Positions 1 through 44,974 of a stretch of 64,000 nt of DNA are shown one piece after another; within the stretch, counting starts at the first letter, position 1, and each line of letters opens with the position of its first letter. Origin of the DNA: Brevibacillus sp. (GTDB taxonomy: Bacteria; Bacillota; Bacilli; Brevibacillales; Brevibacillaceae); NCBI GenBank assembly GCA_017656235.1, contig JACDOF010000001.1, positions 1 through 64,000 on the forward strand, in the 5' to 3' direction. Position numbers and translations under genes: made by a program. The notes beneath the pieces are model-generated. The model did no database searches and was not told the DNA's origin. It saw only the letters and a program-made list of their open reading frames with translations.

Positions 1-55
1 GGGTGGGTCATTTTCATTCCGGCGAAACTGGGTCAATTATATCCCGGCGGTGACA
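1..55. mobile_element. Terminal end of an IS21-family element
   Basis: These bases carry the repeated motif layout of IS21-type termini. On the minus strand the end reads TGTCACCGCCGGGATA, followed by a GACCC-containing repeat, a CCGG segment and a second TGACCC. The outer TGACA at 51-55 would be the tip of the element, with its body to the left of the window. It abuts an IS3 transposase reading frame, so it appears to have inserted into an older element. No transposase of this element is visible here. The family assignment rests on the terminal pattern alone. Confidence 0.55.
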
Positions 56-452: not shown

Positions 453-1889
453 ATGAAGCTGTTCGAGGTAGTGCCGGAGCGTTTTTTCCATTTGCTGACG
501 GGCTCTAATAAGTATCTTTATGCGGAAGCAGTGCTTCTGTTGTATGAGCAGTCACAGCGGGAACGATTCGGTATCAGATATGACGTGATACGCGACCTTT
601 TTCAAGAGTTGATAGAGACCTATAAAGAGTTAGGCGTGGAGCTCACATTCGATGATGAAGATATCGCGAATCAGGCGAAGCACGACAATCGAGCAGGACA
701 AGTAACTGTCGAAGAGTATGCGAGGGCACAGGCCAACTCCCTTATCCGTAAACTGGCTTCGCTAAACTGGATCGATGTCGAAGTGCGCGACCAATTTCAG
801 CAGTTTATTGTTCTTCCCCACTACACCAGTCGGATCTTGGCAGTGCTTAAGGAACTGTGTGAGGCCAGGGCAGTTGAATACCAGCGTTTCGCGTTTGTTA
901 CCTACCAGTTGTTAACGGGAGAAGAAGCGAAACGACGTCCCTGTTTTGCAGTTCGTGAAGCGAAGTTACACACAGACCAATTTGTGAAAGAACTGGTTAC
1001 CCTCTATAACAACATGAAACATCACATGGAACAAGTTGTGCAAAAAAGTTCCATCCAAGATGTGTTGGATCACCATTTTGACAAATACAAATCAGAGATT
1101 GTCGATAAAAGCTACCATCGATTAAAAACCTCGGATCACGTTTCCCGCTACCGCTTTCAAATACTGCAAACGGTACAGCAATGGCTATTGGACAAAGCGT
1201 TGCTGGAAGAAACCGTCGAAGACGGACTGCGCAGCGAGTTTTACCGCGATCGACAAGAGGCAGAAGAAGATATCAGGGAATCCCTGCTGTACATCGAAGA
1301 GACATTTAGCGGATTGGATGAGATTTTCCATCAGATCGATATCCGGCACAATCAATACTTGCGCTCCTCGTATGATCGAGCCCGTTACCTCAGCCAGTAT
1401 CAACAAGGAATCAATCAACGCCTCGTCGATTTCATACGATGCTTGGCTGATTCAAAGAAAGATCTAGTGGAGTTTCCCTGGTCTCATCTATTCCGCTTGC
1501 AGAACATTGCGGGGTTATCGGAACAATCGCTGCTTCCGCCGCGCCGCAAAAAACCTCCGCATCAACCAGACGTACATGTTGTGGTACCGATCCCTGATGA
1601 ACTGAAAGAGGAATTGCGCCGAAAAAATCTCGAACGGATGCGAAAGGCGATCACTCGCCAAAAAGTGGAAGGTTATGTATTGGAGAAACTGGGGAATCGG
1701 CAGGAAATGGAGCTGAAAGAACTGGCGCCTACGAACTTGGAAGAGTTTTTGCTGCTTACCCACATCTATTTATACGGCCAAGACGGGGCATCGAGTTTTC
1801 GATTGAAGCGGAACCAGGAACGCTGTATTTTACAAATTGGAAACTACCGATTTGACAACCACCTGATCGTCCGGCAAGGGGGCAGATAA
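453..1889 (+). CDS. jetA: Wadjet anti-plasmid system protein JetA
   Basis: JetA is the kleisin-like (MukF-like) subunit of type I Wadjet, an SMC-family complex that recognises and cleaves small circular DNA such as plasmids. The 478-residue protein starts MKLFEVVPERFFHLLTGSNK, which is characteristic of the JetA/DUF5716 family, and is mostly helical with charged linker stretches. The start at 453 is preceded by AAAGGGAGA; the frame is open further upstream but lacks a ribosome binding site there. It is first in a tight jetABCD operon and is followed one base later by jetB. Family identity comes from sequence style and the gene order JetA-B-C-D. Confidence 0.9.
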   Translation: MKLFEVVPERFFHLLTGSNKYLYAEAVLLLYEQSQRERFGIRYDVIRDLFQELIETYKELGVELTFDDEDIANQAKHDNRAGQVTVEEYARAQANSLIRKLASLNWIDVEVRDQFQQFIVLPHYTSRILAVLKELCEARAVEYQRFAFVTYQLLTGEEAKRRPCFAVREAKLHTDQFVKELVTLYNNMKHHMEQVVQKSSIQDVLDHHFDKYKSEIVDKSYHRLKTSDHVSRYRFQILQTVQQWLLDKALLEETVEDGLRSEFYRDRQEAEEDIRESLLYIEETFSGLDEIFHQIDIRHNQYLRSSYDRARYLSQYQQGINQRLVDFIRCLADSKKDLVEFPWSHLFRLQNIAGLSEQSLLPPRRKKPPHQPDVHVVVPIPDELKEELRRKNLERMRKAITRQKVEGYVLEKLGNRQEMELKELAPTNLEEFLLLTHIYLYGQDGASSFRLKRNQERCILQIGNYRFDNHLIVRQGGR

Positions 1890-1890
1890 C

Positions 1891-2499
1891 ATGATATTCA
1901 ACGGAATAAGCGAGAGTGAACAGGAAAAAATCAGTGCGCTGATTAACCGGTTGTTGGCGACGAATTTTATAGTCAAAGAAAAAGAGAGAGAAGCGTATGG
2001 GATCGCCCGGCGCCATCGCGAAGCCCTGGAACGGTATTTTCGTTTTCTCGGCTGGGATTTGGTCATTGACGAACGTCATGAATGTTTGTTTCTGCATGCG
2101 CCGGAGCAGGGTTTGCGCAAAAAATTGAATAAGGATCAAAGCCTTTGGCTTCTTATCTTGCGGTTGATCTACCAGGAAAAACGCGAGGGTTTATCCTTAA
2201 GTGAATTTCCGATGACAACCCTGTACGAAATCCGGAGCAAATACGAGACATTCCGCATTCCTTGGATCAATCGGACGAAGCTGGCCGAGATGGTGCGATT
2301 GTGTACAAGCTATCAATTAATGGAGGCGCTTGATAGCGACTTTCGTTCCGATGAATGCCGGTTTCGCCTCTTTCATACGTGGATATACCTAATTGATGCG
2401 GACGAGATGAATGTTGTGAAAGAAAAAATCGAACGGTATGAGACAGCGTTGGAAGGAGGGATGTTTGATGAAATGGATGAAGAAATTGAGGCTCATTAA
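1891..2499 (+). CDS. jetB: Wadjet anti-plasmid system protein JetB
   Basis: JetB is the KITE-type (MukE-like, DUF4194) winged-helix subunit that binds JetA and helps close the SMC ring. The 202-residue sequence has the family's pattern of helical winged-helix segments (for example DQSLWLLILRLIYQEKREG near residues 77-95). It starts one base after the jetA stop and its 3' end overlaps jetC by 32 bases, implying translational coupling. The assignment relies on size, the KITE-like pattern and its place between jetA and jetC. Confidence 0.88.
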   Translation: MIFNGISESEQEKISALINRLLATNFIVKEKEREAYGIARRHREALERYFRFLGWDLVIDERHECLFLHAPEQGLRKKLNKDQSLWLLILRLIYQEKREGLSLSEFPMTTLYEIRSKYETFRIPWINRTKLAEMVRLCTSYQLMEALDSDFRSDECRFRLFHTWIYLIDADEMNVVKEKIERYETALEGGMFDEMDEEIEAH

Positions 2500-5400
2500 C
2501 TGGCATTACTTTACCGATGTGACGATGGAGTTCGGAAAACAGACTCTCATTACGGGACAAAACGGAGCCGGCAAATCGACGATCATCGACGCCCTGCAGG
2601 TTCTCTTTGTCGCCGACCAACGGCAGATTCGCTTTAATCCGGCGGCGCATGAGGAAGCAAAACGGACGATGATCAACTACTTGCGGGGAAAAATCGGAAA
2701 CGATGACCGGACGTTTGTGCGGAACGGTGACTTTACATCTTACATTGTTGCAGAATTTCGCGATGATGAGAAGAAAGAGTCGTTTGTCGTCGGTGTGGTG
2801 ATGGATATTTTTCGGGATCAATCGTATGAGGAAGAGTATTTTATTTTGGCCAATCGCACGCTTGACAGCCTTACATTTGTGAAACCTTCCGGCCATCTGC
2901 GCAACCGAGATGAATTCAAGCGTCTGTATCATAACGATGGTGCCACTCGCGCTCGGACGATATTCGAGCGTAACAAAACCAACTACCAAAAGGCTCTGCT
3001 TGCACGCATGGGTCAGGTTCATGAACGCTTCTTCTCCATTTTTACCAAAGCGCTTTCGTTTAAGCCTATCCAGAATATCCGCGATTTTATTTACGATTAC
3101 ATTCTGGGCCGGCGTGAGCTACAACTCGATTTGATGAAACAGAATTTTGAGATCCACGAGCGGTACAAACAGGAATTAGAAGAGTTGCAGAAGCGCAAGG
3201 AAAAATTGCTTGGCATCCGCAACAGCTTCCAGCAGTACGCAAAACTGCGGGAAACGGTTATTGAACAGGACTATGTGCTCCGCAGGTTAAAACGAGACAT
3301 GGAGCAAGAAACGCTGGAGCAACATGAACAGACCTTGAATGATTTGGAGAAGGCGGTGGCCCAATTGGCGGACGATATCCAGTTTTATGAGCGGAAGCGG
3401 GAGGAAGCGGCGCATGAAAAGGAGGAGGCGTACCAACGCTGGAAAAGCCACTCTGCGGAACAGCAGAAGCGGCAGCTGGGAGAAGAGATCCAACAGTTAG
3501 AGATCCATGAGAAAGAAACGAGACAACAGCTTTCGCTATGGGCGAAGCAGTTGCAGCAAGAGCTTTCCGTGCTTCAGGCATTGACGGATTGGAACGGGAA
3601 TGAGGTCTGGAAATGGGAACCTGGCGAACAGGAACAACTTGTACGCACGCGCGAAACGGTAGCCCATGTGTTGGCGGTGATTGAAAAGGGACAAAGCGGT
3701 GTTGAACATGACGAGGGTGTGCTTCAAACATTCCGCAGCGCAGGGTTGTTGCTCTTGGCGCTTCACGAACGATTTTTGGTTGTAAGGACCCGCTTAGAGG
3801 ATCAATTGCGGGAGGTGGAGAACAGGCTCGCTGAGCTGGAACGGGTGATCCGCGATCTGGAGGATCGCAAACGTCCGTATCCTCCTTCTGTGGCAAGGCT
3901 GAAAGAATTGCTGGAGGAATGTTTTTCTGGCCGTTCTCACGTGTGGATTTTCTGTGAAGAGATGGAGATAGAGGACGAAGTGTGGCGGGATGCGGTAGAA
4001 GGGTATTTGAATACGCAGAGATTTGACCTGTTGGTGGAACCGGAAGTATTTGCTGAGGCATTGTCGGTTTACGAGAAGGAGAAGTTTACTTACAAATTGG
4101 AAGGGGTAGGTCTGGTCGACACCGAAAAGGAACGGAAATACTTGGGGAGGTCGGAACCAGGTTCTCTCGCTGAGGCAGTGAAGGCAGAACATCCTGTTAT
4201 TCGTGCACACATGGAGCATTTACTCGGCAAAGTAATGAAAGCAGCAAACGAACAGGAACTGCGTGAACACCGTACAGCCATTACGAGTACATGCATGTTG
4301 TACCAGAATTTAGTTGCTCGTCAAATTCCGAAAGATCGCTATGCGATTCCGTATATCGGCGCCCAGGCGATCGTTCGGCAACTGGAAATCAAACGCGCAG
4401 AATTAGCACGTGCGAAGGCACAGCAGAAATCGATGAGACTCGCTATGGAAGAACTGTCTGGCTGGGCCGCGCGTTTGGCGCAAAAACACACTCAATATGA
4501 GCGTATATTGGACAATGTTGATCTTCCTACACGACTGCGGGTTTGTCTGGAGAGATTAGCGGCGAAACGGAAAGAATTGACCGGTCTTGACATGAGCGAA
4601 GCGGAACGATTGAAAGCAGATTATGAAGAATGGAGACGGATGGAAGAGGATTGGAATCAGAAGAGCAAGGAATTGACCGGGTTAAAAGCGCAGCGGGAAG
4701 AGAACAAGAAAAACTTGTCAGCCGTTATCTATTTGCAGCAGAGGAGGGTACGCGAAGCGCACCAGTTTCTCGAGCAGTGGCTGCAGGAGAACGGTCCTGA
4801 GAAAGAGCAACGGGCTTTGGTTCGCTGGGAAGAAGCACAGAAACAAGATTTGCCTACCGCCCGCAAGATTGATAACTGGGAAAACAACTGGAAAGGCAAT
4901 CAAACGCGACGTGATGACGCATTTCGCGATCTGCAACTGCTTCGCCAGGAATTTAACATCGAATATTCCTTTAGCGGTCCCATCACCTCTGAGGAGAATG
5001 ATGCGTACGAATCACTTCTGTACAACATCGAACACTTGAATATTCCGGAATATCAGAAAAAGGTGGAGCTTGCGCTAAAGGAATCGGAGGAGGAGTTCAA
5101 GACACACTTCCTATTACGGATGAGAGAAGCGATCCAAATGGCTCGCAAGGAATTTGATCAACTCAACTATGCCCTGCGCCATTTTCCGTTTTCCGATGAC
5201 AAATACCACTTTGAAGTCTCCGCAAGCGAGAAATATAAGAACTTTTACGACGCGATTATGGATCCAATGTTGATGGAAAAGGGATCTTTGTTCGATATTC
5301 CAGACAATGACCGAAGCGAAGTCCTGCATCATCTCTTTGAATTGCTGGTACGGGGAGATACAGGTGATATCGAAGAATTTACCGATTACCGGCGCTACCT

Positions 5401-5806
5401 AGATTTTGACATCATCGTCACCACGCGTGACTCGCGTTACCGTTTTTCGCAGGTGCTCAAAGAGAAATCCGGTGGTGAGACGCAAACGCCGTTTTACATC
5501 GCGATTCTCGCTTCATTTCATCACTTGTACGCAAGCGGGAAGACGATGCGCCTGGTTGTTTTTGATGAAGCCTTCAACAAGATGGATGAACAACGCATTC
5601 AAACGAGCTTGCGCTTGATCAAGCAGATGAATTTACAGTTGATCGCTGCCGTTCCGGACGAAAAGATGCAGCACATGGCACCGGAAGTAACGACAACGCT
5701 TATTGTTAGCAACCAAAACTACGAATGCTTCGTCGACATAATCGATCGATGGGACGCGGAGGATGAAGTGGCTTCGACGTCGGCAGAAGACTCCACGCGC
5801 TTGTAG
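2468..5806 (+). CDS. jetC: Wadjet anti-plasmid system SMC-like ATPase JetC
   Basis: JetC is the MukB/SMC-like motor of Wadjet. The 1112-residue protein has Walker A GQNGAGKST near residues 30-38, long coiled coils with a hinge-like middle (about residues 500-640), an ABC signature KSGGETQT near 1000-1007 and Walker B LVVFDEA near 1029-1035. The chosen start (ATG 2468) has GGAGG eight bases upstream. An upstream in-frame ATG at 2438 lacks this and would extend the overlap with jetB. All ATPase motifs look intact, so the system is probably active. Confidence 0.92.
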   Translation: MKWMKKLRLINWHYFTDVTMEFGKQTLITGQNGAGKSTIIDALQVLFVADQRQIRFNPAAHEEAKRTMINYLRGKIGNDDRTFVRNGDFTSYIVAEFRDDEKKESFVVGVVMDIFRDQSYEEEYFILANRTLDSLTFVKPSGHLRNRDEFKRLYHNDGATRARTIFERNKTNYQKALLARMGQVHERFFSIFTKALSFKPIQNIRDFIYDYILGRRELQLDLMKQNFEIHERYKQELEELQKRKEKLLGIRNSFQQYAKLRETVIEQDYVLRRLKRDMEQETLEQHEQTLNDLEKAVAQLADDIQFYERKREEAAHEKEEAYQRWKSHSAEQQKRQLGEEIQQLEIHEKETRQQLSLWAKQLQQELSVLQALTDWNGNEVWKWEPGEQEQLVRTRETVAHVLAVIEKGQSGVEHDEGVLQTFRSAGLLLLALHERFLVVRTRLEDQLREVENRLAELERVIRDLEDRKRPYPPSVARLKELLEECFSGRSHVWIFCEEMEIEDEVWRDAVEGYLNTQRFDLLVEPEVFAEALSVYEKEKFTYKLEGVGLVDTEKERKYLGRSEPGSLAEAVKAEHPVIRAHMEHLLGKVMKAANEQELREHRTAITSTCMLYQNLVARQIPKDRYAIPYIGAQAIVRQLEIKRAELARAKAQQKSMRLAMEELSGWAARLAQKHTQYERILDNVDLPTRLRVCLERLAAKRKELTGLDMSEAERLKADYEEWRRMEEDWNQKSKELTGLKAQREENKKNLSAVIYLQQRRVREAHQFLEQWLQENGPEKEQRALVRWEEAQKQDLPTARKIDNWENNWKGNQTRRDDAFRDLQLLRQEFNIEYSFSGPITSEENDAYESLLYNIEHLNIPEYQKKVELALKESEEEFKTHFLLRMREAIQMARKEFDQLNYALRHFPFSDDKYHFEVSASEKYKNFYDAIMDPMLMEKGSLFDIPDNDRSEVLHHLFELLVRGDTGDIEEFTDYRRYLDFDIIVTTRDSRYRFSQVLKEKSGGETQTPFYIAILASFHHLYASGKTMRLVVFDEAFNKMDEQRIQTSLRLIKQMNLQLIAAVPDEKMQHMAPEVTTTLIVSNQNYECFVDIIDRWDAEDEVASTSAEDSTRL

Positions 5807-5836
5807 CAGGATACGCTGTTTTAAGAGGGGGGCAAC

Positions 5837-7126
5837 ATGGAAAAGGGCGTAAATGAACAGCAGTTTAAGAATAGGTTTATCAAACAGGTTCTTGGCTATT
5901 TGCTGGAAAAATACGAACGGAGTCAGGCCTTCGTAAGGGAACAGCCTGGAAGATCGAAGCCGCAATTTGCCATAAAAGAAAGTCCGTTTTTCTCCGACTA
6001 CTTTGACGAGATGGATTTTCGTAAAAGGGAATGGATGCACGATGTCCTGCTGCAGTTGGAGCAGCAGGGCATCGTGTCCTTGTCCTGGGTAAAATTCAAA
6101 GAGGGTACGGAACTTTCCAAAGTAGTCCTTTCCTTGGACTCGGTTGAGAGTGCTTACACCTTGTCCGGGATTACACCAAAACTAGAAAAAATCAAGCGTC
6201 TGCAAGAGATTCTCAAGCCGTTGGAAACTCACCCTTGGGAATGGGTGAAAAACTGGTGGAAGCAGACGGACGAAGCCCTTTCCCGCAAAAAGACATCCGG
6301 CCTCGAGCTCGATGACCCCGATGGATATACGGATCTGGTGAAAGTGTTACTCAAATTGCCGAAAATGGAACTGGATACTCCAAAACGCCTATTCAGCCAG
6401 GATGTGTTCCTCGACTCGAAATATTTTGAGCAAAAGGTGGAAAAACGACTTGTATCTCTGCTGAAAACATGCGTAGAGAAGGAGTTTGAAACAGATCAAG
6501 AGTATCTGGACAGCGTCGGGATTGTTCAACACCCAAGGAGTGTCTTCGTGTCGGGGATGTTTCAGTTTCGAGTTGGAGAAACCATAATCAATTCCAAAGG
6601 ACTTCCGGGCGGAATCGGCCTGTCCATGCAAACGATCATGGAGATGGAGATTTTGAGCTTGCAAACTGAAAGAATTATTATGGTCGAAAATCTGACGAGC
6701 TATTATCAATGGATACAGTATCGATATGGATTTGACGAGCTTGTCATATATACAGGAGGATTTCCCCACGGGGTGCTGAGAACCTTCCTTTCCAAACTTG
6801 CTACTTTTATTGATTCCTACCATGTGAAAATCCCCGTGTATCATTGGGGGGATATCGATCTTGGCGGCATCAGAATTTTTGAGCATCTCAGGCAGAACTA
6901 TTTTAAAGAATTACAGCCACTTTGGATGGATGAACAAATACTAATCAAGTATAAAGATAGGGGTATTCCATTAAAAGACCCCTATCTGCTAAAAGTAAAA
7001 GCCTTGTTAGCAGACCCTCGTTATGCCACCTGGGTAAATGTCTTACGAGGCATGATTCAACATCGTGTCCGGATCGAGCAAGAAACTGTTTTTGAATACG
7101 CCAATTTTGCTGGTACGGCAGAATAG
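5837..7126 (+). CDS. jetD: Wadjet anti-plasmid system nuclease JetD
   Basis: JetD is the Toprim-fold nuclease subunit (DUF3322/DUF2220 type) that cuts DNA reeled in by JetABC. The 429-residue protein keeps the Toprim acidic residues: Glu284 in MVENLTSYY, and Asp339/Asp341 in HWGDIDLGG. A TGGFP segment lies between them. The N-terminal half (DUF3322-like) is helical and would contact DNA or JetA. The start has a strong AGAGGGGGG site and lies 30 bases after jetC. With intact catalytic residues the four-gene system looks complete. Confidence 0.9.
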   Translation: MEKGVNEQQFKNRFIKQVLGYLLEKYERSQAFVREQPGRSKPQFAIKESPFFSDYFDEMDFRKREWMHDVLLQLEQQGIVSLSWVKFKEGTELSKVVLSLDSVESAYTLSGITPKLEKIKRLQEILKPLETHPWEWVKNWWKQTDEALSRKKTSGLELDDPDGYTDLVKVLLKLPKMELDTPKRLFSQDVFLDSKYFEQKVEKRLVSLLKTCVEKEFETDQEYLDSVGIVQHPRSVFVSGMFQFRVGETIINSKGLPGGIGLSMQTIMEMEILSLQTERIIMVENLTSYYQWIQYRYGFDELVIYTGGFPHGVLRTFLSKLATFIDSYHVKIPVYHWGDIDLGGIRIFEHLRQNYFKELQPLWMDEQILIKYKDRGIPLKDPYLLKVKALLADPRYATWVNVLRGMIQHRVRIEQETVFEYANFAGTAE

Positions 7127-7220: not shown

Positions 7221-7619
7221 GTGCGAATTGGTATAAACAATAAAGATTTATCCTGCCCTTTCTGCGATAGACAGTCCCTTAATATCATTCTGGAAAACGA
7301 CCTGGCCATTGCATTTTATGATAAATACCCGGTTCAACGAGGCCACCTGCTGATCGTCCCCAAACGGCATGCTGCTGCATATTTCGATGCTGCTGATGAA
7401 GAGATCATGGCTATTCACGAGCTCATTAAGAAAGGAAAAGAACTGCTTGATCGTGAATACTCCCCTGACGGCTACAATATCGGGGTTAATGTTGGGGAGT
7501 ACGGCGGCCAGACGGTCATGCATCTGCACGTGCACTTGATTCCCCGCTACAAGGGAGACATTGATGATCCGCGGGGCGGAATCCGCAAAGCAATCCCCAA
7601 TCTCGTACCGTATCCATAA
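7221..7619 (+). CDS. HIT-family nucleotide hydrolase/transferase
   Basis: The 132-residue protein carries the histidine-triad motif HLHVH at residues 101-105, the catalytic signature of HIT nucleotide-binding hydrolases (AMP-lysyl, Ap4A or similar bonds), and a CPFC pair at 12-15 that is common in zinc-binding HIT proteins. The C-terminus (DPRGGIRKAIPNL) is usual for this family. The GTG start follows AGAGGGTG. It is 95 bases after jetD and 14 bases before the MazG-like gene, so it more likely heads the HIT-MazG-helicase set than belongs to Wadjet. The substrate cannot be told from sequence. Confidence 0.88.
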   Translation: MRIGINNKDLSCPFCDRQSLNIILENDLAIAFYDKYPVQRGHLLIVPKRHAAAYFDAADEEIMAIHELIKKGKELLDREYSPDGYNIGVNVGEYGGQTVMHLHVHLIPRYKGDIDDPRGGIRKAIPNLVPYP

Positions 7620-7632
7620 AGGAGATTCTGCT

Positions 7633-7956
7633 ATGCCGATTTATAACAAACTGATTCGAGACCGTATTCCCGAAATCATTGCAGCATCCGGTAAACGGTA
7701 TGCGACCAGCGTATTATCGGATGATGAGTACCTGGTCAAACTACGGGAAAAGTGCCGGGAAGAGCTCAACGAGTACAACTCTGCCCAATCCGATCAGGAG
7801 CGCCTGGAGGAATTGGCAGATCTGTTGGAAGTTGTCTATGCGCTTGCCCGTGTTCACGGAGCTTCTCCGAGGGATTTGGAAGAGATTCGCAGATCCAAGG
7901 CGGAGAAGCGTGGTGGTTTTGAAAAAAAGCTGCTTCTTCACGAGGTAGAGGATTGA
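7633..7956 (+). CDS. MazG-like / PRA-PH-like NTP pyrophosphohydrolase
   Basis: The 107-residue protein begins MPIYNKLIRDRIPEIIAASG and carries the acidic helix set EELNEY and RLEELADLLEVVYAL, the metal-binding ExxE / ExxD pattern of all-alpha NTP pyrophosphohydrolases. Members remove pyrophosphate from nucleoside triphosphates or phosphoribosyl-ATP. No other his genes are nearby, so a housekeeping or defence role is likelier than histidine synthesis. The ATG at 7633 has GGAG just upstream. Its stop overlaps the start of the helicase gene (TGATG), which implies coupled expression. Confidence 0.85.
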   Translation: MPIYNKLIRDRIPEIIAASGKRYATSVLSDDEYLVKLREKCREELNEYNSAQSDQERLEELADLLEVVYALARVHGASPRDLEEIRRSKAEKRGGFEKKLLLHEVED

Positions 7957-10418
7957 TGTCAGAGGTCAGACTTGTTACCGAAAATCTAGTGACAGAATTG
8001 GTGGAGGAAATGAAGAAATCTTCCGCTATCTACATGCTCACTTCTTTTGTCATGTACTCCGGTGTTCGGCTGCTTGAGCCGCATCTGAAAGAAGCAGTCC
8101 AGCGTGGAGCAGAAGTAAAAGTTCTTACTGGAGATTATCTGTTTGTGACGCAGCCGCATGCGCTGCAGGCGCTGCTTGATATTGATCCACGGATGGAGGT
8201 TCGTCTGTGGCGAAGCGGTGGAGCATCTTTTCACCCCAAAGCGTATCTCCTCGAAAACGAAGAAAACGATGGAGTTTTGATTGTTGGCTCATCGAATCTG
8301 TCGCGCTCCGCCTTGACCTGTGGCGTCGAGTGGAATGTGGCTGTGCAGGCCAAAGCGGCACCCATGACATTTGAAGAAGCGCAAACCAAATTCATGCACC
8401 TGTTTTACCATGAGCAGACCGTTTCCCTAAACAGCGAGACCTGCTTGTCTTATGCAAAGGAGTATGATGAGTATCACCGTCTGCATCCCTCACTCGTCAA
8501 AACGTGGACAGAAACGGAAGAAATCGAACTGACCATGCCGGTGGTCGAGTATGCCGAAGAGCAGAATCCCCTTGTGCTAAAAGAAGCAATGGCTCCATAT
8601 GGTGGCATTGTTCCCCGGCCGGCTCAGCAGATCGCGCTCGAAGAATTGGAGAAAACGATGAGTGAAGGCTATGACAAGGCAATGGTGGTCATGGCTACCG
8701 GACTGGGAAAAACGTACTTGGCTGCCTTTTTTGCAAGGAACTTTAACAGGGTTCTCTTTATCGCCCATCGGGAAGAACTGCTCTACCAGGCGCGCCGTTC
8801 CTTTGCGGAAGTGATGCCGGAACGATCCTGCGGGATCTATGACGGCCACACGAAGGAAAGTCAGGCAGATTCCGTTTTTGCGTCCATATACACGTTAAGC
8901 ATGAAGCGCCATCTGGAAGTGTTTCGGCCTGACGAGTTTGAACTAATTATCGTGGATGAGTTTCACCACGCCGCCGCGAATTCATACAGACGTGTGCTTG
9001 ATTATTTCCAGCCAGCCTTCTTGCTGGGAATCACGGCGACGCCATACCGAACAGACGGGAAAGACGTTTACGCCATCTGTGACGGAAATGTTGCCTTTCA
9101 GCTGGATTTTTTGGAAGCGGTCCAGCGTGGATGGTTGGCTCCGTTTCGCTACTACGGCGTCTATGACGATACGGATTATTCGCAAATAACCTGGCTAGGT
9201 ACTCGTTACGATGAAGAAGAGCTGTTACACGCACAACTCAAAGATGAGATGGCAGCGAAAATATTTGCAGCATGGAACAAACATAAACAATCCAGAACGC
9301 TTGCATTTTGCTCCTCGATACGACAGGCGGATTTCTTAAAGAAATTCTTTCAGGATCAGGGTGTTCGGGCACTTAGTCTCCACTCCAGGACGAGGGAAAT
9401 GTCGCGGTCAGAGGCGATTCGCCGGATGGAAGAAGGGGAGTTGGAGATCATCTTTACCGTTGACCTTTTTAATGAGGGAACGGATATCCCATCGGTGGAC
9501 ACGCTCTTGTTTGTTCGCCCGACGGAATCTTTAACCATTTTTACCCAGCAAGTCGGGCGTGGTTTGCGTTTGCATCCTGCCAAAGAGTACTGCACGATTA
9601 TTGATTTGATTGGAAACTATCGCAATGCGGACGTGAAACTGGGCCTTTTTGATACAAGAACGGATACGGAAAGAAAGAATTCTGACTGGAAGCCTGTCGT
9701 GCCAAACAATTGTGCCATTGAACTGGAAACGGAAGTTGTCAACCTGCTGCAGGAAATGGCCCGTAAAAGGCAGCCGCGTAAGGAAAAACTTCTCCAGGCT
9801 TTTGAAGACGTAAAACGCGATCTGGGGCGGATTCCCACTTATCTTGAACTTCATCTGCACGGAAGAGAAAACAGTCGAGAGTACAGGCAGGAATTTACAT
9901 CGTACATCCGTTTTCTGGATTGGGCCGGTCAATTAACCGAACAAGAGAGAGAACTGCTGAGAAAATATGAGCCATGGCTCAACGAGGTCGAAGGGACAGG
10001 GATGGCTAAAAGCTATAAAATGATCGTCCTCCTTTACATGCTCAATCGAGGCGAACAAAGATGGCATCATCCGGTAACTCCACAGGAGGCAGCGCCTTTC
10101 TTTCACCGATATTTGACCGAAAAGGAATACCGCAAACGGATTGACTTCTCAGACAAGTCATCACAGAAATTATGGACGTACAATGAAGAACAGGTGGCCA
10201 GGCTGATCGCCGAGATGCCGATGAGCAAGTGGAGCGGCAGCTCGAAGGGATTGGTTACATTCGCTGACGGTGTGTTTTCACTCAATTTCGACATTGATCC
10301 GCAGGACAGCCCGATTCTCTACCGTTGGACAAGAGATATCTGTCTGTATCGGCTGCACTACCATTTTGAGAAGAAAGCGGGTAGATCAGAATTGGAGAAG
10401 GTCGATCCATCATTTTGA
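7956..10418 (+). CDS. PLD-nuclease / superfamily 2 helicase fusion, DUF3427-like
   Basis: The 820-residue protein joins an N-terminal phospholipase D-type domain to an SF2 helicase. The PLD motif is H93-x-K95 followed by the SSN run near 112-114. The helicase has motif I ATGLGKT (247-253), motif II DEFHH (334-338), motif III TATP (360-363) and motif VI QQVGRGLR. The C-terminal part resembles the DUF3427 region found in similar helicases. Only one HxK is present, so the nuclease would act as a dimer, as in other single-motif PLD enzymes. Such fusions occur in restriction and defence contexts. The partners HIT and MazG-like are co-translated; the exact role is unknown. Confidence 0.85.
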   Translation: MSEVRLVTENLVTELVEEMKKSSAIYMLTSFVMYSGVRLLEPHLKEAVQRGAEVKVLTGDYLFVTQPHALQALLDIDPRMEVRLWRSGGASFHPKAYLLENEENDGVLIVGSSNLSRSALTCGVEWNVAVQAKAAPMTFEEAQTKFMHLFYHEQTVSLNSETCLSYAKEYDEYHRLHPSLVKTWTETEEIELTMPVVEYAEEQNPLVLKEAMAPYGGIVPRPAQQIALEELEKTMSEGYDKAMVVMATGLGKTYLAAFFARNFNRVLFIAHREELLYQARRSFAEVMPERSCGIYDGHTKESQADSVFASIYTLSMKRHLEVFRPDEFELIIVDEFHHAAANSYRRVLDYFQPAFLLGITATPYRTDGKDVYAICDGNVAFQLDFLEAVQRGWLAPFRYYGVYDDTDYSQITWLGTRYDEEELLHAQLKDEMAAKIFAAWNKHKQSRTLAFCSSIRQADFLKKFFQDQGVRALSLHSRTREMSRSEAIRRMEEGELEIIFTVDLFNEGTDIPSVDTLLFVRPTESLTIFTQQVGRGLRLHPAKEYCTIIDLIGNYRNADVKLGLFDTRTDTERKNSDWKPVVPNNCAIELETEVVNLLQEMARKRQPRKEKLLQAFEDVKRDLGRIPTYLELHLHGRENSREYRQEFTSYIRFLDWAGQLTEQERELLRKYEPWLNEVEGTGMAKSYKMIVLLYMLNRGEQRWHHPVTPQEAAPFFHRYLTEKEYRKRIDFSDKSSQKLWTYNEEQVARLIAEMPMSKWSGSSKGLVTFADGVFSLNFDIDPQDSPILYRWTRDICLYRLHYHFEKKAGRSELEKVDPSF

Positions 10419-14746: not shown

Positions 14747-14899
14747 CTTGAAAGATGCCGAACGCTGCCCGCAGCCGAAATGAGAATAAGGGATGAGGGG
14801 GTTTTGCTTGCAAACAAGACTGAGCATGTTGGCAAGTCAATTCTGAATTGAGCATGCAGCTGTGACTTGGGATCAAACCATGGTGAAAGGAGAATTCCA

Positions 14900-15153
14900 A
14901 TGGTGCAGTTTACGGAGGAGTTGCGCCAAATCGCGCGTACGGTCGAAGCGTTTGTCGACAACGAGGTGGAACCCTTCGCCAACCAAATCGAAGAGGAAGA
15001 CCGCGTGCCGGAGCACCTGCTGGACAAGGCAAAACAACTGGGATTGTACGGCATGGGCATCCCGAAGAGTACGGCGGACTCGGTCTTGATGTTTTCGGCA
15101 AGTGCCTGGTCCTGGAAAAACTGGGCCGCACCCATAACGGATTCGTTTCGTGC
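14900..15153 (+). pseudogene. Acyl-CoA dehydrogenase N-terminal fragment, frameshifted
   Basis: The ATG at 14900 (AAAGGAG upstream) opens MVQFTEELRQIARTVEAFVDN, a typical acyl-CoA dehydrogenase N-terminus. Near 15064 one base is missing: the other frame continues as PEEYGGLGLDVFGKCLVLEK and then LGRTHNGF, exactly the order in the intact paralogue at 22507. Homology ends near 15153, so under a quarter of the roughly 380-residue enzyme survives. The FAD-binding and catalytic Glu regions are absent. It is not functional. Confidence 0.85.
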
Positions 15154-15228
15154 GATGTCCGGATTATAGCGGCTACCAACCGGGACTTGAAGAAGATGGT
15201 GGAGGAAGGTTCGTTCCGCGAAGATCTG
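15154..15228 (+). pseudogene. Fragment of a sigma54-activator AAA+ domain
   Basis: In the frame that continues from the dehydrogenase fragment, codons read DVRIIAATNRDLKKMVEEG and then SFREDL. This is the conserved sensor I region of sigma54 activators, compare DVRIIAATNRDLKELVEKG in the intact gene at 17987. About 25 codons remain, joined seamlessly to the preceding fragment, which points to deletion by recombination between two former genes. The next 100 bases (to 15331) match nothing I recognise. Confidence 0.75.
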
Positions 15229-15331
15229 TCTCGCGTGAAGAGTGCTGCATGTTATCACAACCTGAAAAAGGTAATTCTTGTCGAGCTGAGCCCGTTTCCA
15301 ACCGAACGTACCGGACAAAACCGTTTTATGG

Positions 15332-15604
15332 GAGGAATTCGTGGACGCCCACCCCGGCGTGCTGGAAGCGGCAGTGGTTGGCGTGCCGCACGAGTATCGG
15401 GGGGAGACGGTCAAAGCGTATATCGTTTTGAAACCGGGGGCCAGTGCGACGGCGGAGGAGATCGAGCAGTTTTGCCGGGAACGTCTGGCTGCTTACAAGG
15501 TCCCCCGGCAAATCGAGTTTCGCGACTCGCTGCCAAAAACGGCTGTTGGCAAGATCCTGCGCCGGAATCTTGCAGATGAAGCGAGAATGAAAAAGGAGTT
15601 GTAG
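15332..15604 (+). pseudogene. C-terminal fragment of an acyl-CoA synthetase (AMP-binding)
   Basis: The frame from 15332 reads [20 protein letters not shown], then [10 protein letters not shown], and ends [18 protein letters not shown]. This is the C-terminal lid domain of acyl/acetyl-CoA synthetases with its catalytic Lys in [11 protein letters not shown]. The adenylation domain is missing. It could still be translated from internal starts but cannot act alone. With the two fragments upstream it shows that a longer beta-oxidation locus has collapsed here. Confidence 0.85.
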
Positions 15605-42562: not shown

Positions 42563-42675
42563 ACACCGTTGGAACCACGAGGATGGGGAGGTGTGATTGA
42601 TACGGAGGGCGTGCCGCTCTTTCTTGTGCTTGTCATGCGTAGGCACCGCCATGCCTTATTCGTTGTCTACCGCAA

Positions 42676-42709
42676 GCATCCTTTCCCGACGAGAGAGGAT
42701 GCTTTTTTT
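42676..42709 (+). terminator. Riboswitch expression-platform terminator
   Basis: GCATCCT (42676-42682) pairs with AGGATGC (42696-42702), followed by seven T. It sits between the riboswitch and nrdA, so cobalamin binding would favour termination here. Confidence 0.85.
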
Positions 42710-42733
42710 CATTACGTAAAGGAGATGAAGATA

Positions 42734-44974
42734 TTGCAAACATTTGTTTCTGACATCGACAGACGGCTCACTTCGCTCATCAGCGAAATCATGGTTGATT
42801 TTCCGCAGTTGAATGCGGATGCCGTCATTCGCGGTGCCTCGGCGAAAGCGAAACACAAAGAACTCACGGAACAAGAACTGGCGAACGTCGCCGCCATGTC
42901 GGCCGCCGAACTGATCTCCAAAGAGGAACCGGAATGGACCTATGTCGCAGCCAGGACGTATCTCGCTGCGCTGTATCACGAAGCGGCCCGAAACCGGGCA
43001 TACCCATTCAGCCTGTCTCGTCCCTACGGTTCTTTTCCCACCTTGTTGCAGCAGTTGGTTGAAAAAGGCATTTACAAAAAGGAACTGCTGACTGCCTATC
43101 GTCGGGAAGACATCGTGGAACTGGAACGAGAGATCGATCCCGAAAAGGACAAGCTGTTTACCTATTTGGGGATTGTTACGCTCGCCGAGCGGTATTTGGC
43201 CAGGGATTACACCGGCAACCTGTATGAACTGCCCCAAGAGCGGTTTATGATCATTGCCATGCACCTGATGATGCAGGAGCCCACCGAAAAAAGACTGGCT
43301 CTGGTGAAAGAAGCCTATTGGGCACTGAGCCATCAGTACATGACGGTGGCAACGCCCACCATGGCCAATGCAGGAAAAGCAAGGGGCGGACAGCTCTCGA
43401 GCTGCTTCGTGGACACGGTCGACGACTCTCTGCAGGGCATCTACGATTCCAACACCGATATTGCCCGGCTGTCCAAAATGGGCGGCGGCATCGGCGTCTA
43501 TATGGGAAAAGTGCGGGCGCGCGGCTCTTCCATCCGCGGGTACGAAAACAAATCCAGCGGGGTCATTCCGTGGATCCGCCAACTGAACAACACAGCGGTA
43601 AGCGTCGACCAACTCGGAACACGAAACGGCAGCGTTGCCGTTTATCTCGATGTGTGGCACAAGGATATCCTGGCTTTTCTGGATCTGAAGATGAACAATG
43701 GCGACGAGCGCATGCGAGCGCATGACGTCTTCACGGGTGTGTGCATTCCTGATCTCTTCATGGAAGCGGTGGAAAAAAGGGGAGAGTTTCACTTGTTTGA
43801 TCCGCATGAAGTTCGCAGCGTCATGGGCTTTTCCTTGGAGGATTTCTATGATGAGGAGCCGGGGCGAGGCAGCTTCCGCGAACGTTATGAAGCGTGCGTC
43901 CGCCATCCCCGCTTGAGCCGCGTGACCTTACCGGCCATCGAGATCATGAAGCGGATCATGATCTCGCAGCTGGAGACGGGAACTCCGTTTATGTTCTACC
44001 GGGATACCGTCAACCGCGCCAATCCCAACAAACATGCGGGAATGATTTACTCCAGCAACCTGTGCACGGAAATTCTGGAGAACATGTCTCCCACAACGGT
44101 GCGCGAAGAAGTGCTGCAGGACGGAGAGATTGTGATTCGGAAAACACCGGGCGATTTCGTCGTCTGCAACCTCTCCAGCATCAACCTGGGTCGCGCCGTA
44201 CCCGCTAATGTGTTGGAGCGGCTGATTCCCATTCAGGTGCGCATGCTGGACAACGTGATCGATGTGAATCGGATCGACGTTTTGCAGGCCCACCATACCA
44301 ACCAAAAGTACCGGGGCATTGGGCTTGGCGCCTTTGGACTGCATCATCTGCTCGCCCTCCATCATATCAGATGGGAAAGTGAAGAGGCGGTCACCTTCAA
44401 CGATCGTCTGTTTGAGCGGATCAATTATTTGGTCATTCGCGCTTCATTGGAATTGGCCAAAGAAAAAGGAGCCTATCCGCTCTTTTCGGGCAGCGAGTGG
44501 GAAAGTGGGGAGTATTTTGTCCGCAGGGGCTACGATTCTCCCGAGTGGAAGGCGCTGGCGAAAGAAGTGGCCGAATACGGCATTCGAAACGGGTATCTGA
44601 TGGCCATTGCACCCACCGGCTCCACGTCGCTGATCGCCGGTTCCACCGCTTCCGTCGATCCGGTTTTCGAGCCGGTCACCTACGAAGAGAAAACAACGTA
44701 CAAAATCGCCAATCCCGCTCCCGACCTGTCTCCCCGCACGATGTGGTACTACAAGGGAGCGCATCATCTGGATCAGCACTGGTCGATCAAACAGGCTGCC
44801 GCCCGCCAACGTCATCTCGATCAGGGACAAAGTGTCAATTTGTATGTCCGCCCAGACATCCATGCCAGGGATTTACTGCGGCTGCATATGGAGGCCTGGA
44901 AACAGGAACTGAAGACAACCTACTACGTCCGCAGCCGCGCGATTGAGATCCATCAATGCGAAGCCTGCACATAA
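42734..44974 (+). CDS. nrdA: Class I ribonucleoside-diphosphate reductase, large subunit
   Basis: Reduces ribonucleotides to deoxyribonucleotides. About 746 residues. The active-site Cys of the redox pair is in GQLSSCFVDTVDD, the radical-site residues are in SSNLCTEI (Asn, Cys, Glu), and the second redox Cys is in DFVVCNLSSINLG. The C-terminal tail carries CEAC for reactivation. No N-terminal ATP-cone is seen, so allosteric activity control may be absent. TTG 42734 is chosen with AAAGGAG nine bases before it; ATG 42725 abuts that site. The frame extends back to 42569 through the terminator and is not coding there. Confidence 0.93.
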   Translation: MQTFVSDIDRRLTSLISEIMVDFPQLNADAVIRGASAKAKHKELTEQELANVAAMSAAELISKEEPEWTYVAARTYLAALYHEAARNRAYPFSLSRPYGSFPTLLQQLVEKGIYKKELLTAYRREDIVELEREIDPEKDKLFTYLGIVTLAERYLARDYTGNLYELPQERFMIIAMHLMMQEPTEKRLALVKEAYWALSHQYMTVATPTMANAGKARGGQLSSCFVDTVDDSLQGIYDSNTDIARLSKMGGGIGVYMGKVRARGSSIRGYENKSSGVIPWIRQLNNTAVSVDQLGTRNGSVAVYLDVWHKDILAFLDLKMNNGDERMRAHDVFTGVCIPDLFMEAVEKRGEFHLFDPHEVRSVMGFSLEDFYDEEPGRGSFRERYEACVRHPRLSRVTLPAIEIMKRIMISQLETGTPFMFYRDTVNRANPNKHAGMIYSSNLCTEILENMSPTTVREEVLQDGEIVIRKTPGDFVVCNLSSINLGRAVPANVLERLIPIQVRMLDNVIDVNRIDVLQAHHTNQKYRGIGLGAFGLHHLLALHHIRWESEEAVTFNDRLFERINYLVIRASLELAKEKGAYPLFSGSEWESGEYFVRRGYDSPEWKALAKEVAEYGIRNGYLMAIAPTGSTSLIAGSTASVDPVFEPVTYEEKTTYKIANPAPDLSPRTMWYYKGAHHLDQHWSIKQAAARQRHLDQGQSVNLYVRPDIHARDLLRLHMEAWKQELKTTYYVRSRAIEIHQCEACT

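What the first reader, a model, noticed from the sequence alone, without database searches (positions are those of the whole stretch)
7221..10418. HIT / MazG-like / PLD-helicase set as a possible second defence module beside Wadjet
Three genes are tightly arranged (14-base gap, then a TGATG overlap) and directly follow a complete Wadjet operon in a region scarred by transposons. A nucleotide hydrolase, an NTP pyrophosphohydrolase and a nuclease-helicase together fit signal or nucleotide-depletion defence. I do not recognise it as a named system. Housekeeping roles remain possible.
Basis: partly seen in the sequence, partly recalled or inferred. Interest (0 to 1): 0.65.

Follow-up and report, generated by a model that had tools for sequence, protein, structure and literature searches.

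The report
Nuclease-helicase defence cassette with nucleotide-acting partners
Three neighbouring genes form a small cassette found across the Bacillota, a DNA-cutting motor enzyme related to the SauUSI restriction enzyme plus one or two small nucleotide-acting enzymes, probably a restriction system whose small partners keep its trigger out of the host's own DNA; the partner role is inferred, not shown.

Summary
HIT (7221-7619), a MazG-like pyrophosphohydrolase (7633-7956) and a PLD-SF2-helicase (7956-10418) are intact and follow a complete Wadjet type I operon. They form one unit. Their DNA block (7254-10398) recurs in B. thermoruber-like G026 at 90% identity with wholly different neighbours (C5-methylase, Vsr, AIPR). 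Of 108 homologous nuclease-helicase loci, 105 have a MazG-like (91), HIT (18) or small SAM-methyltransferase (8) gene within 700 bp. HIT and MazG-like are fused in three genomes, and partners were swapped repeatedly on the tree. Flanks are rich in defence genes.

The large protein is closest to SauUSI. PLD nuclease and motor match, and the helical coupler fits, but SauUSI's methyl-cytosine-reading SRA domain is absent. SRA-bearing cousins usually sit beside a NudG-like NUDIX gene, and SauUSI itself does.

Best reading: a SauUSI-like restriction nuclease whose small partners clear unusual nucleotides that would otherwise enter host DNA and provoke self-cleavage. Defence role: likely. Partner role: inferred (about 40%). 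The target is unknown; a broad methyl-cytosine target is not supported. New variant of a known kind. Wadjet is an island neighbour, not part of the system.

The parts
7221..7619 (+). HIT-family nucleotidyl hydrolase/transferase (132 aa, HLHVH motif); start codon GTG uncertain
   Evidence: Pfam HIT 5.9e-23; triad invariant in alignment A3
7633..7956 (+). MazG-like / PRA-PH all-alpha NTP pyrophosphohydrolase (107 aa)
   Evidence: Pfam PRA-PH 6e-6; acidic catalytic residues E43 E44 E47 E59 E60 D63 invariant in 32 relatives
7956..10418 (+). SauUSI-like endonuclease: PLD nuclease (aa ~1-190), linker (~190-220), SF2 motor (~220-600), helical C-terminus (~605-809), no SRA domain (820 aa)
   Evidence: phmmer to SauUSI 7clg 8e-84 over aa 8-654; AlphaFold2 model with Foldseek top hit 7clg 9e-41; C-terminal model against SauUSI 616-799 Z 7.2
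8232..8255 (+). PLD catalytic motif H93-x-K95-x4-E100 of the nuclease
   Evidence: same spacing as the SauUSI H(X)K(X)4E motif; H93 and K95 invariant
7254..10398 (+). block of DNA conserved as one unit with different flanks in relatives (90% in G026, 86% in G003)
   Evidence: blastn
453..7126 (+). neighbouring complete Wadjet type I operon (jetA 453-1889, jetB 1891-2499, jetC 2468-5806, jetD 5837-7126); context, not part of the cassette
   Evidence: PADLOC JetA/B/C/D models at 1e-88 or better

Best explanation
A mobile restriction (anti-invader) cassette. Its effector is a SauUSI-like enzyme that lacks SauUSI's SRA domain: a PLD nuclease that probably dimerises, an ATP-driven double-strand DNA motor, and a helical coupler that probably senses the target itself (it has weak winged-helix resemblance). 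It would load on invading DNA that carries a feature the host lacks (a modified or unusual base, or a structure), translocate and cut both strands. The small partner enzymes, here HIT and a MazG-like pyrophosphohydrolase, most likely sanitise the nucleotide pool. They would hydrolyse the modified or damaged (d)NTPs or nucleotidyl conjugates that, once built into host DNA, would make the chromosome a target; during infection they may also starve a phage of its modified nucleotides. Shown here: gene set, intact catalytic motifs, SauUSI relationship, absence of SRA, conserved coupling, partner swapping, defence-rich context. Inferred: DNA cleavage, target, partner substrates, protection.
For: SauUSI relationship. 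Coupling: 105 of 108 loci have a partner within 700 bp, mostly overlapping or nearly abutting genes on the same strand; HIT-MazG fusions in L156, L179 and L188; gene order MazG-HEL in Bacillales but HEL-HIT-MazG in Clostridia-type lineages; partner type changed at least 4 (SAM), 6 (HIT+MazG) and 5 (HIT) times on well-supported branches of a FastTree tree. In 398 Bacillota genomes the MazG-like gene lies within about 0.45 kb of the nuclease in 26 of 37, while 32 of the other 361 genomes have such a gene at all (counted by hand). Defence context: 107 PADLOC families matched by 70 flank proteins against 4 by 70 random proteins; DndFGH, GmrSD, NERD-UvrD and McrB-like AAA near by; AIPR, C5-methylase and Vsr in G026. 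Pool-sanitiser role: SRA-bearing cousins have a NudG-like NUDIX neighbour in 31 of 44; SauUSI itself has one 1 bp upstream; the closest named enzyme of known activity to that NUDIX is E. coli Orf135/NudG, PDB 2RRK, a 5-methyl-dCTP pyrophosphatase (PMC5389931, PMC10742078); the human MazG-family enzyme DCTPP1 also hydrolyses 5-methyl-dCTP (PMC10742078, PMC4491611). The same MazG-like family also sits next to other restriction-type nucleases: DUF2357-PDDEXK_7, an MTES_1575-like nuclease-helicase, HNH plus Schlafen-type helicase. The host genome has no match to PF00145 or PF02384 and none over cut-off to PF01555.
Against: No cleavage, substrate or protection data. The SRA domain that makes SauUSI modification-dependent is missing, so modification dependence is an extrapolation. 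C5-methylase genes are not depleted in genomes with this nuclease (10 of 37 against 99 of 361), and in G026 a C5-methylase is in the same island, so a general methyl-cytosine target is unlikely. A SAM-methyltransferase in the partner slot does not fit a simple hydrolase story. HIT substrates are hard to predict. Only profile-level similarity links this MazG-like protein to enzymes of known substrate.
Confidence: 0.45

Rival explanations
1. Nucleotide depletion. On infection the MazG-like and HIT enzymes break down (d)NTPs or a nucleotide cofactor and stop phage replication, while the nuclease-helicase cuts DNA or acts as the sensor.
For: MazG-like hydrolases are predicted defence domains in DefensePredictor (PMC13092281, unvalidated). 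Catalytic residues are invariant.
Against: Partners can be exchanged for a SAM-methyltransferase and differ in chemistry; no regulatory domain is visible on the small enzymes; the NUDIX on the cousin system is NudG-like, a house-cleaning type.
Confidence: 0.2
2. Modification-dependent restriction with the C-terminal winged-helix-like domain as reader of N6-methyladenine or another mark; partners are auxiliary.
For: The C-terminal model resembles the SauUSI coupler and, weakly, winged helices (Z 5-7); wH domains read N6-methyladenine in other type IV enzymes, probably including PLD-wH fusions (PMC11037411); the host genome has no N6_Mtase match and only a fragmentary D12 match.
Against: Z under 8 for a helical domain may be a common arrangement only; adenine methylases were not surveyed across genomes with the nuclease.
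Confidence: 0.15
3. DNA repair or stress set: house-cleaning hydrolases plus a RadD/UvrB-like motor nuclease that removes damaged stretches from the cell's own DNA.
For: The motor domain also resembles RadD, and MazG/NUDIX enzymes are known house-cleaners.
Against: Patchy distribution (only G000 of three genomes of the genus has it), block transfer with different flanks, defence-rich flanks and the PLD nuclease of the SauUSI type.
Confidence: 0.12
4. HIT and MazG-like enzymes make or destroy a small nucleotide signal that switches the nuclease on or off.
For: Tight coupling and HIT-MazG fusion imply action on one pathway.
Against: No cyclase, Cap-like or ligand-binding domain in the cassette or regularly next to it; the SauUSI motor is triggered by DNA.
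Confidence: 0.06
5. Chance neighbours in a defence island.
For: Defence islands gather unrelated genes; Wadjet next door is such a neighbour.
Against: 105 of 108 loci, overlapping genes, fusions, order changes with linkage kept.
Confidence: 0.02

Closest known systems
SauUSI (type IV, 5-methylcytosine-dependent, Staphylococcus aureus)
   Same: PLD nuclease with HxK(x)4E, linker, SF2 motor, helical coupler; a small nucleotide-pool enzyme gene abuts both
   Different: SauUSI has a C-terminal SRA target-recognition domain (806-953) that this protein lacks; the partner is NUDIX there, HIT and MazG-like here
DUF3427 PLD-helicases (PADLOC mREase_IV)
   Same: 30-37% identical over PLD and motor; often within 4 kb of this nuclease
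   Different: They carry DUF3427 and pair with NUDIX (PADLOC PDC-S07); this family pairs with MazG-like, HIT or SAM-methyltransferase
NgoAVII / CglI restriction systems
   Same: PLD nuclease plus SF2 motor
   Different: Two separate subunits with a B3 recognition domain (PMC7913695); here one chain without B3
MazG-family house-cleaners (DCTPP1, MazG)
   Same: Catalytic acidic motif, predicted NTP pyrophosphohydrolase
   Different: No close solved relative (best PDB profile hit 0.004, a HisE domain); linked to restriction nucleases

Membership tests
SauUSI-type restriction enzyme | N-terminal PLD nuclease with H(x)K(x)4E | tested here: met
   H93-P-K95-x4-E100, H and K invariant
SauUSI-type restriction enzyme | SF2 helicase-like ATPase | tested here: met
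   ResIII 6e-39, Walker A/B and motif VI intact, PDB fold matches
SauUSI-type restriction enzyme | alpha-helical coupler after the motor | tested here: inconclusive
   First part aligns by sequence to SauUSI 665; the whole C-terminus matches SauUSI 616-799 with Z 7.2, best row but below the level that is safe for helical domains
SauUSI-type restriction enzyme | C-terminal SRA target-recognition domain | tested here: not met
   The protein ends where SauUSI's TRD begins; no DUF3427/SRA hit; all-helical model apart from one hairpin. A longer cousin used as comparison does hit DUF3427
Type IV (modification-dependent) restriction | cleaves only modified DNA | not testable with these tools
   Indirect tests: no C5-methylase depletion; few methylases in the own genome
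MazG-like all-alpha NTP pyrophosphohydrolase | acidic EExxE...ExxD metal-binding residues | tested here: met
   Invariant in 32 relatives; Pfam PRA-PH over cut-off, MazG-like below cut-off
HIT family | HxHxH triad | tested here: met
   H101, H103, H105 invariant
Thoeris (ThsC, HIT family in PADLOC) | ThsC-type HIT together with ThsA/ThsB | tested here: not met
   HIT hits the ThsC model at 1e-12, but the other genes of the unit and the four upstream genes show no ThsA/ThsB among the matches listed
Wadjet | cassette is a constant part of the Wadjet locus | tested here: not met
   G026 has the cassette without a JetC match; in G003 it lies about 11.6 kb from Wadjet

The most novel reading that the evidence does not exclude
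Restriction nucleases of the SauUSI kind carry an exchangeable 'guardian' slot (NUDIX, MazG-like, HIT, HIT-MazG fusion, or SAM-methyltransferase) whose products prevent autoimmunity by removing from the nucleotide pool the very nucleotides that the nuclease recognises in DNA. The guardian's substrate would then reveal the nuclease's target.
Probability: 0.3. Interest if true: 0.78.

Novelty: new variant of a known kind. Interest (0 to 1): 0.6.

Why it matters
Type IV enzymes have no protective methylase, and how their hosts avoid self-cutting through salvaged modified nucleotides is rarely asked. A pool-cleaning partner coded beside the nuclease would answer it and can be tested directly. The MutT-like neighbour of SauUSI homologues was noted in passing for Streptococcus (PMC7641849), and MazG has been predicted as a defence domain without validation (PMC13092281); the MazG-like/HIT/SAM-methyltransferase slot beside an SRA-less SauUSI relative is, as far as the held papers show, not described.

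Tried and rejected
Wadjet extension: rejected. Methyl-cytosine as general target: C5-methylases not depleted. Phage- or plasmid-borne system: no full-length relative in plasmids, phages or IMG/VR, only DUF3427-type or other motors. Known fold for the C-terminal domain: Foldseek gave no hit under E 0.1; VIA gave SauUSI coupler and winged helices at Z 5-7. MazG-like substrate from structure homologues: only a HisE domain at 0.004. One fetch from genomes failed for an over-long region. The defence enrichment counts PADLOC families matched, not proteins, and several models can match one protein, so it is a rough measure. The tree is a FastTree tree with some long branches; L164 and L293 are unsafe in it.

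Full report
Observation. The three genes are present and intact: HIT 7221-7619, MazG-like 7633-7956, PLD-helicase 7956-10418. The HIT-MazG gap is 13 bases; the MazG stop and the nuclease start share one base (TGATG). Catalytic residues are complete and invariant among relatives. Upstream lies a full Wadjet type I operon. The window is the start of contig C1 of a 3.6 Mb genome whose nearest relatives at this locus are a Brevibacillus thermoruber record (92% in the nuclease) and a record named Anoxybacillus sediminis (88%).

One unit. Between the window and the B. thermoruber-like genome G026, DNA similarity starts at 7254 and stops at 10398, that is, at the cassette's edges, at 90% identity; the flanks there are a C5-methylase, a Vsr endonuclease and an AIPR abortive-infection protein instead of Wadjet. 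In G003 the block is 86% identical and lies 11.6 kb from a Wadjet operon. The genome has a second HIT gene on another contig, so this one is not its only HIT protein.

Linkage across genomes. In 80 loci fetched by the nuclease alone, the MazG-like gene directly precedes the nuclease, usually overlapping it, in most Bacillus, Paenibacillus, Exiguobacterium and related loci. In 398 Bacillota genomes I counted 37 with a relative that reaches the C-terminal domain; 26 have the MazG-like gene within about 0.45 kb. In more distant lineages the order is nuclease-HIT-MazG. HIT and MazG-like domains are fused in L156, L179 and L188. Relatives without either carry a roughly 195-aa SAM-methyltransferase overlapping or abutting the nuclease; the same occurs on a Pseudoalteromonas plasmid, although that 983-aa protein may belong to the longer cousins. 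In a pooled set, 105 of 108 nuclease loci had a partner within 700 bp: MazG-like 91, HIT 18, SAM-methyltransferase 8, the last never with the others. On a FastTree tree, starred branches force at least 4 changes for SAM, 6 for HIT+MazG and 5 for HIT. The slot is stable while its occupant changes.

What the nuclease is. By sequence its best PDB match is SauUSI, 8e-84 over residues 8-654; PADLOC's best models are mREase_IV. The AlphaFold2 model (pLDDT 83) has SauUSI as top Foldseek hit at 9e-41. SauUSI is nuclease 1-191, motor 221-617, coupler 618-805, SRA domain 806-953 (PMC7913695). The C-terminus here, modelled alone (pLDDT 91), fits SauUSI 616-799 best (Z 7.2, 147 residues) and the chain then ends. 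The SRA domain is thus missing, and the target reader is unknown. A second, DUF3427-bearing PLD-helicase lies near this nuclease in many loci.

The cousin system as a clue. DUF3427/SauUSI-type proteins have a NUDIX gene within 700 bp in 31 of 44 loci, and in an S. aureus stretch the NUDIX gene ends 1 bp before a 953-aa SauUSI-type gene. This NUDIX is closest in the PDB to a 'Mutator mutT protein' (5x1x) and next to E. [quoted passage not shown] SauUSI cuts 5-methylcytosine DNA. DCTPP1, of the MazG-like superfamily, also takes 5-methyl-dCTP (PMC10742078, PMC4491611). The neighbourhood NUDIX-SauUSI was mentioned in a legend of PMC7641849.

Defence context. Neighbours include DndF/DndH, GmrSD, NERD-UvrD, McrB-like AAA proteins and the PADLOC candidates PDC-M33 and PDC-S07. 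A sample of 70 flank proteins matched 107 PADLOC families at 1e-25, and 70 random-region proteins matched 4. The MazG-like family without this nuclease sits in some genomes beside DUF2357-PDDEXK_7 proteins, an MTES_1575-like nuclease-helicase, or an HNH protein with a Schlafen-type helicase, again restriction-type nucleases; in others its neighbours are unremarkable.

Mechanism. Shown: architecture, motifs, linkage, swapping, context. Inferred from SauUSI: dimeric PLD nuclease, DNA translocation, double-strand cuts. Inferred and weaker: that partners guard host DNA by clearing nucleotides that the nuclease would recognise once built in. Against a simple methyl-cytosine version: C5-methylases are as common in genomes with the nuclease (10 of 37) as in the rest (99 of 361), and G026 has one next door. 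The host genome lacks PF00145 and PF02384 matches and has only sub-threshold or fragmentary ones for PF01555 and PF02086, which allows but does not prove modification dependence.

Verdict. A real, conserved, apparently undescribed variant of the SauUSI kind with an exchangeable nucleotide-acting partner. Defence role about 0.85, SauUSI-like cleavage about 0.75, guardian role of partners about 0.4.

Noticed in passing
window 1-55: 96% match to the end of an IS21-like element of the relative G026 (L298 14117-14171); the contig probably breaks in this repeat.
   Followed up: partly
L297 14799-14906 (G003): A 108-bp remnant of the nuclease gene (like window 8421-8528, 88%) lies just downstream of JetD, while an intact copy sits 11.6 kb away: an older cassette may once have followed Wadjet there too.
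   Followed up: partly
L012 1474-3273 (G019): The nuclease's helical C-terminal domain is fused to a DUF4145 domain without PLD or motor, next to a NucS-like/DUF5655 protein: the C-terminus is a portable module.
   Followed up: partly
L136, L147, L149, L151, L152, L159, L293: About 195-218-aa SAM-methyltransferase of the Methyltransf_11/TehB type overlapping or abutting PLD-helicases; substrate unknown.
   Followed up: partly
L179 5208-11587: NUDIX gene, HIT-MazG fusion gene and a 1618-aa protein with DEAD/DEAH and UvrD helicase domains in a row, without the PLD-helicase.
   Followed up: partly
L183, L186: The MazG-like gene sits beside DUF2357-PDDEXK_7 proteins.
   Followed up: partly
window 14867-15604: Short ORFs look like fragments of acyl-CoA dehydrogenase and acyl-CoA synthetase genes next to the etf and Fe-S oxidoreductase genes; likely decayed (judged by eye).
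   Followed up: no
window 42569-44974: Ribonucleotide reductase large subunit (Pfam barrel 1e-162).
   Followed up: no
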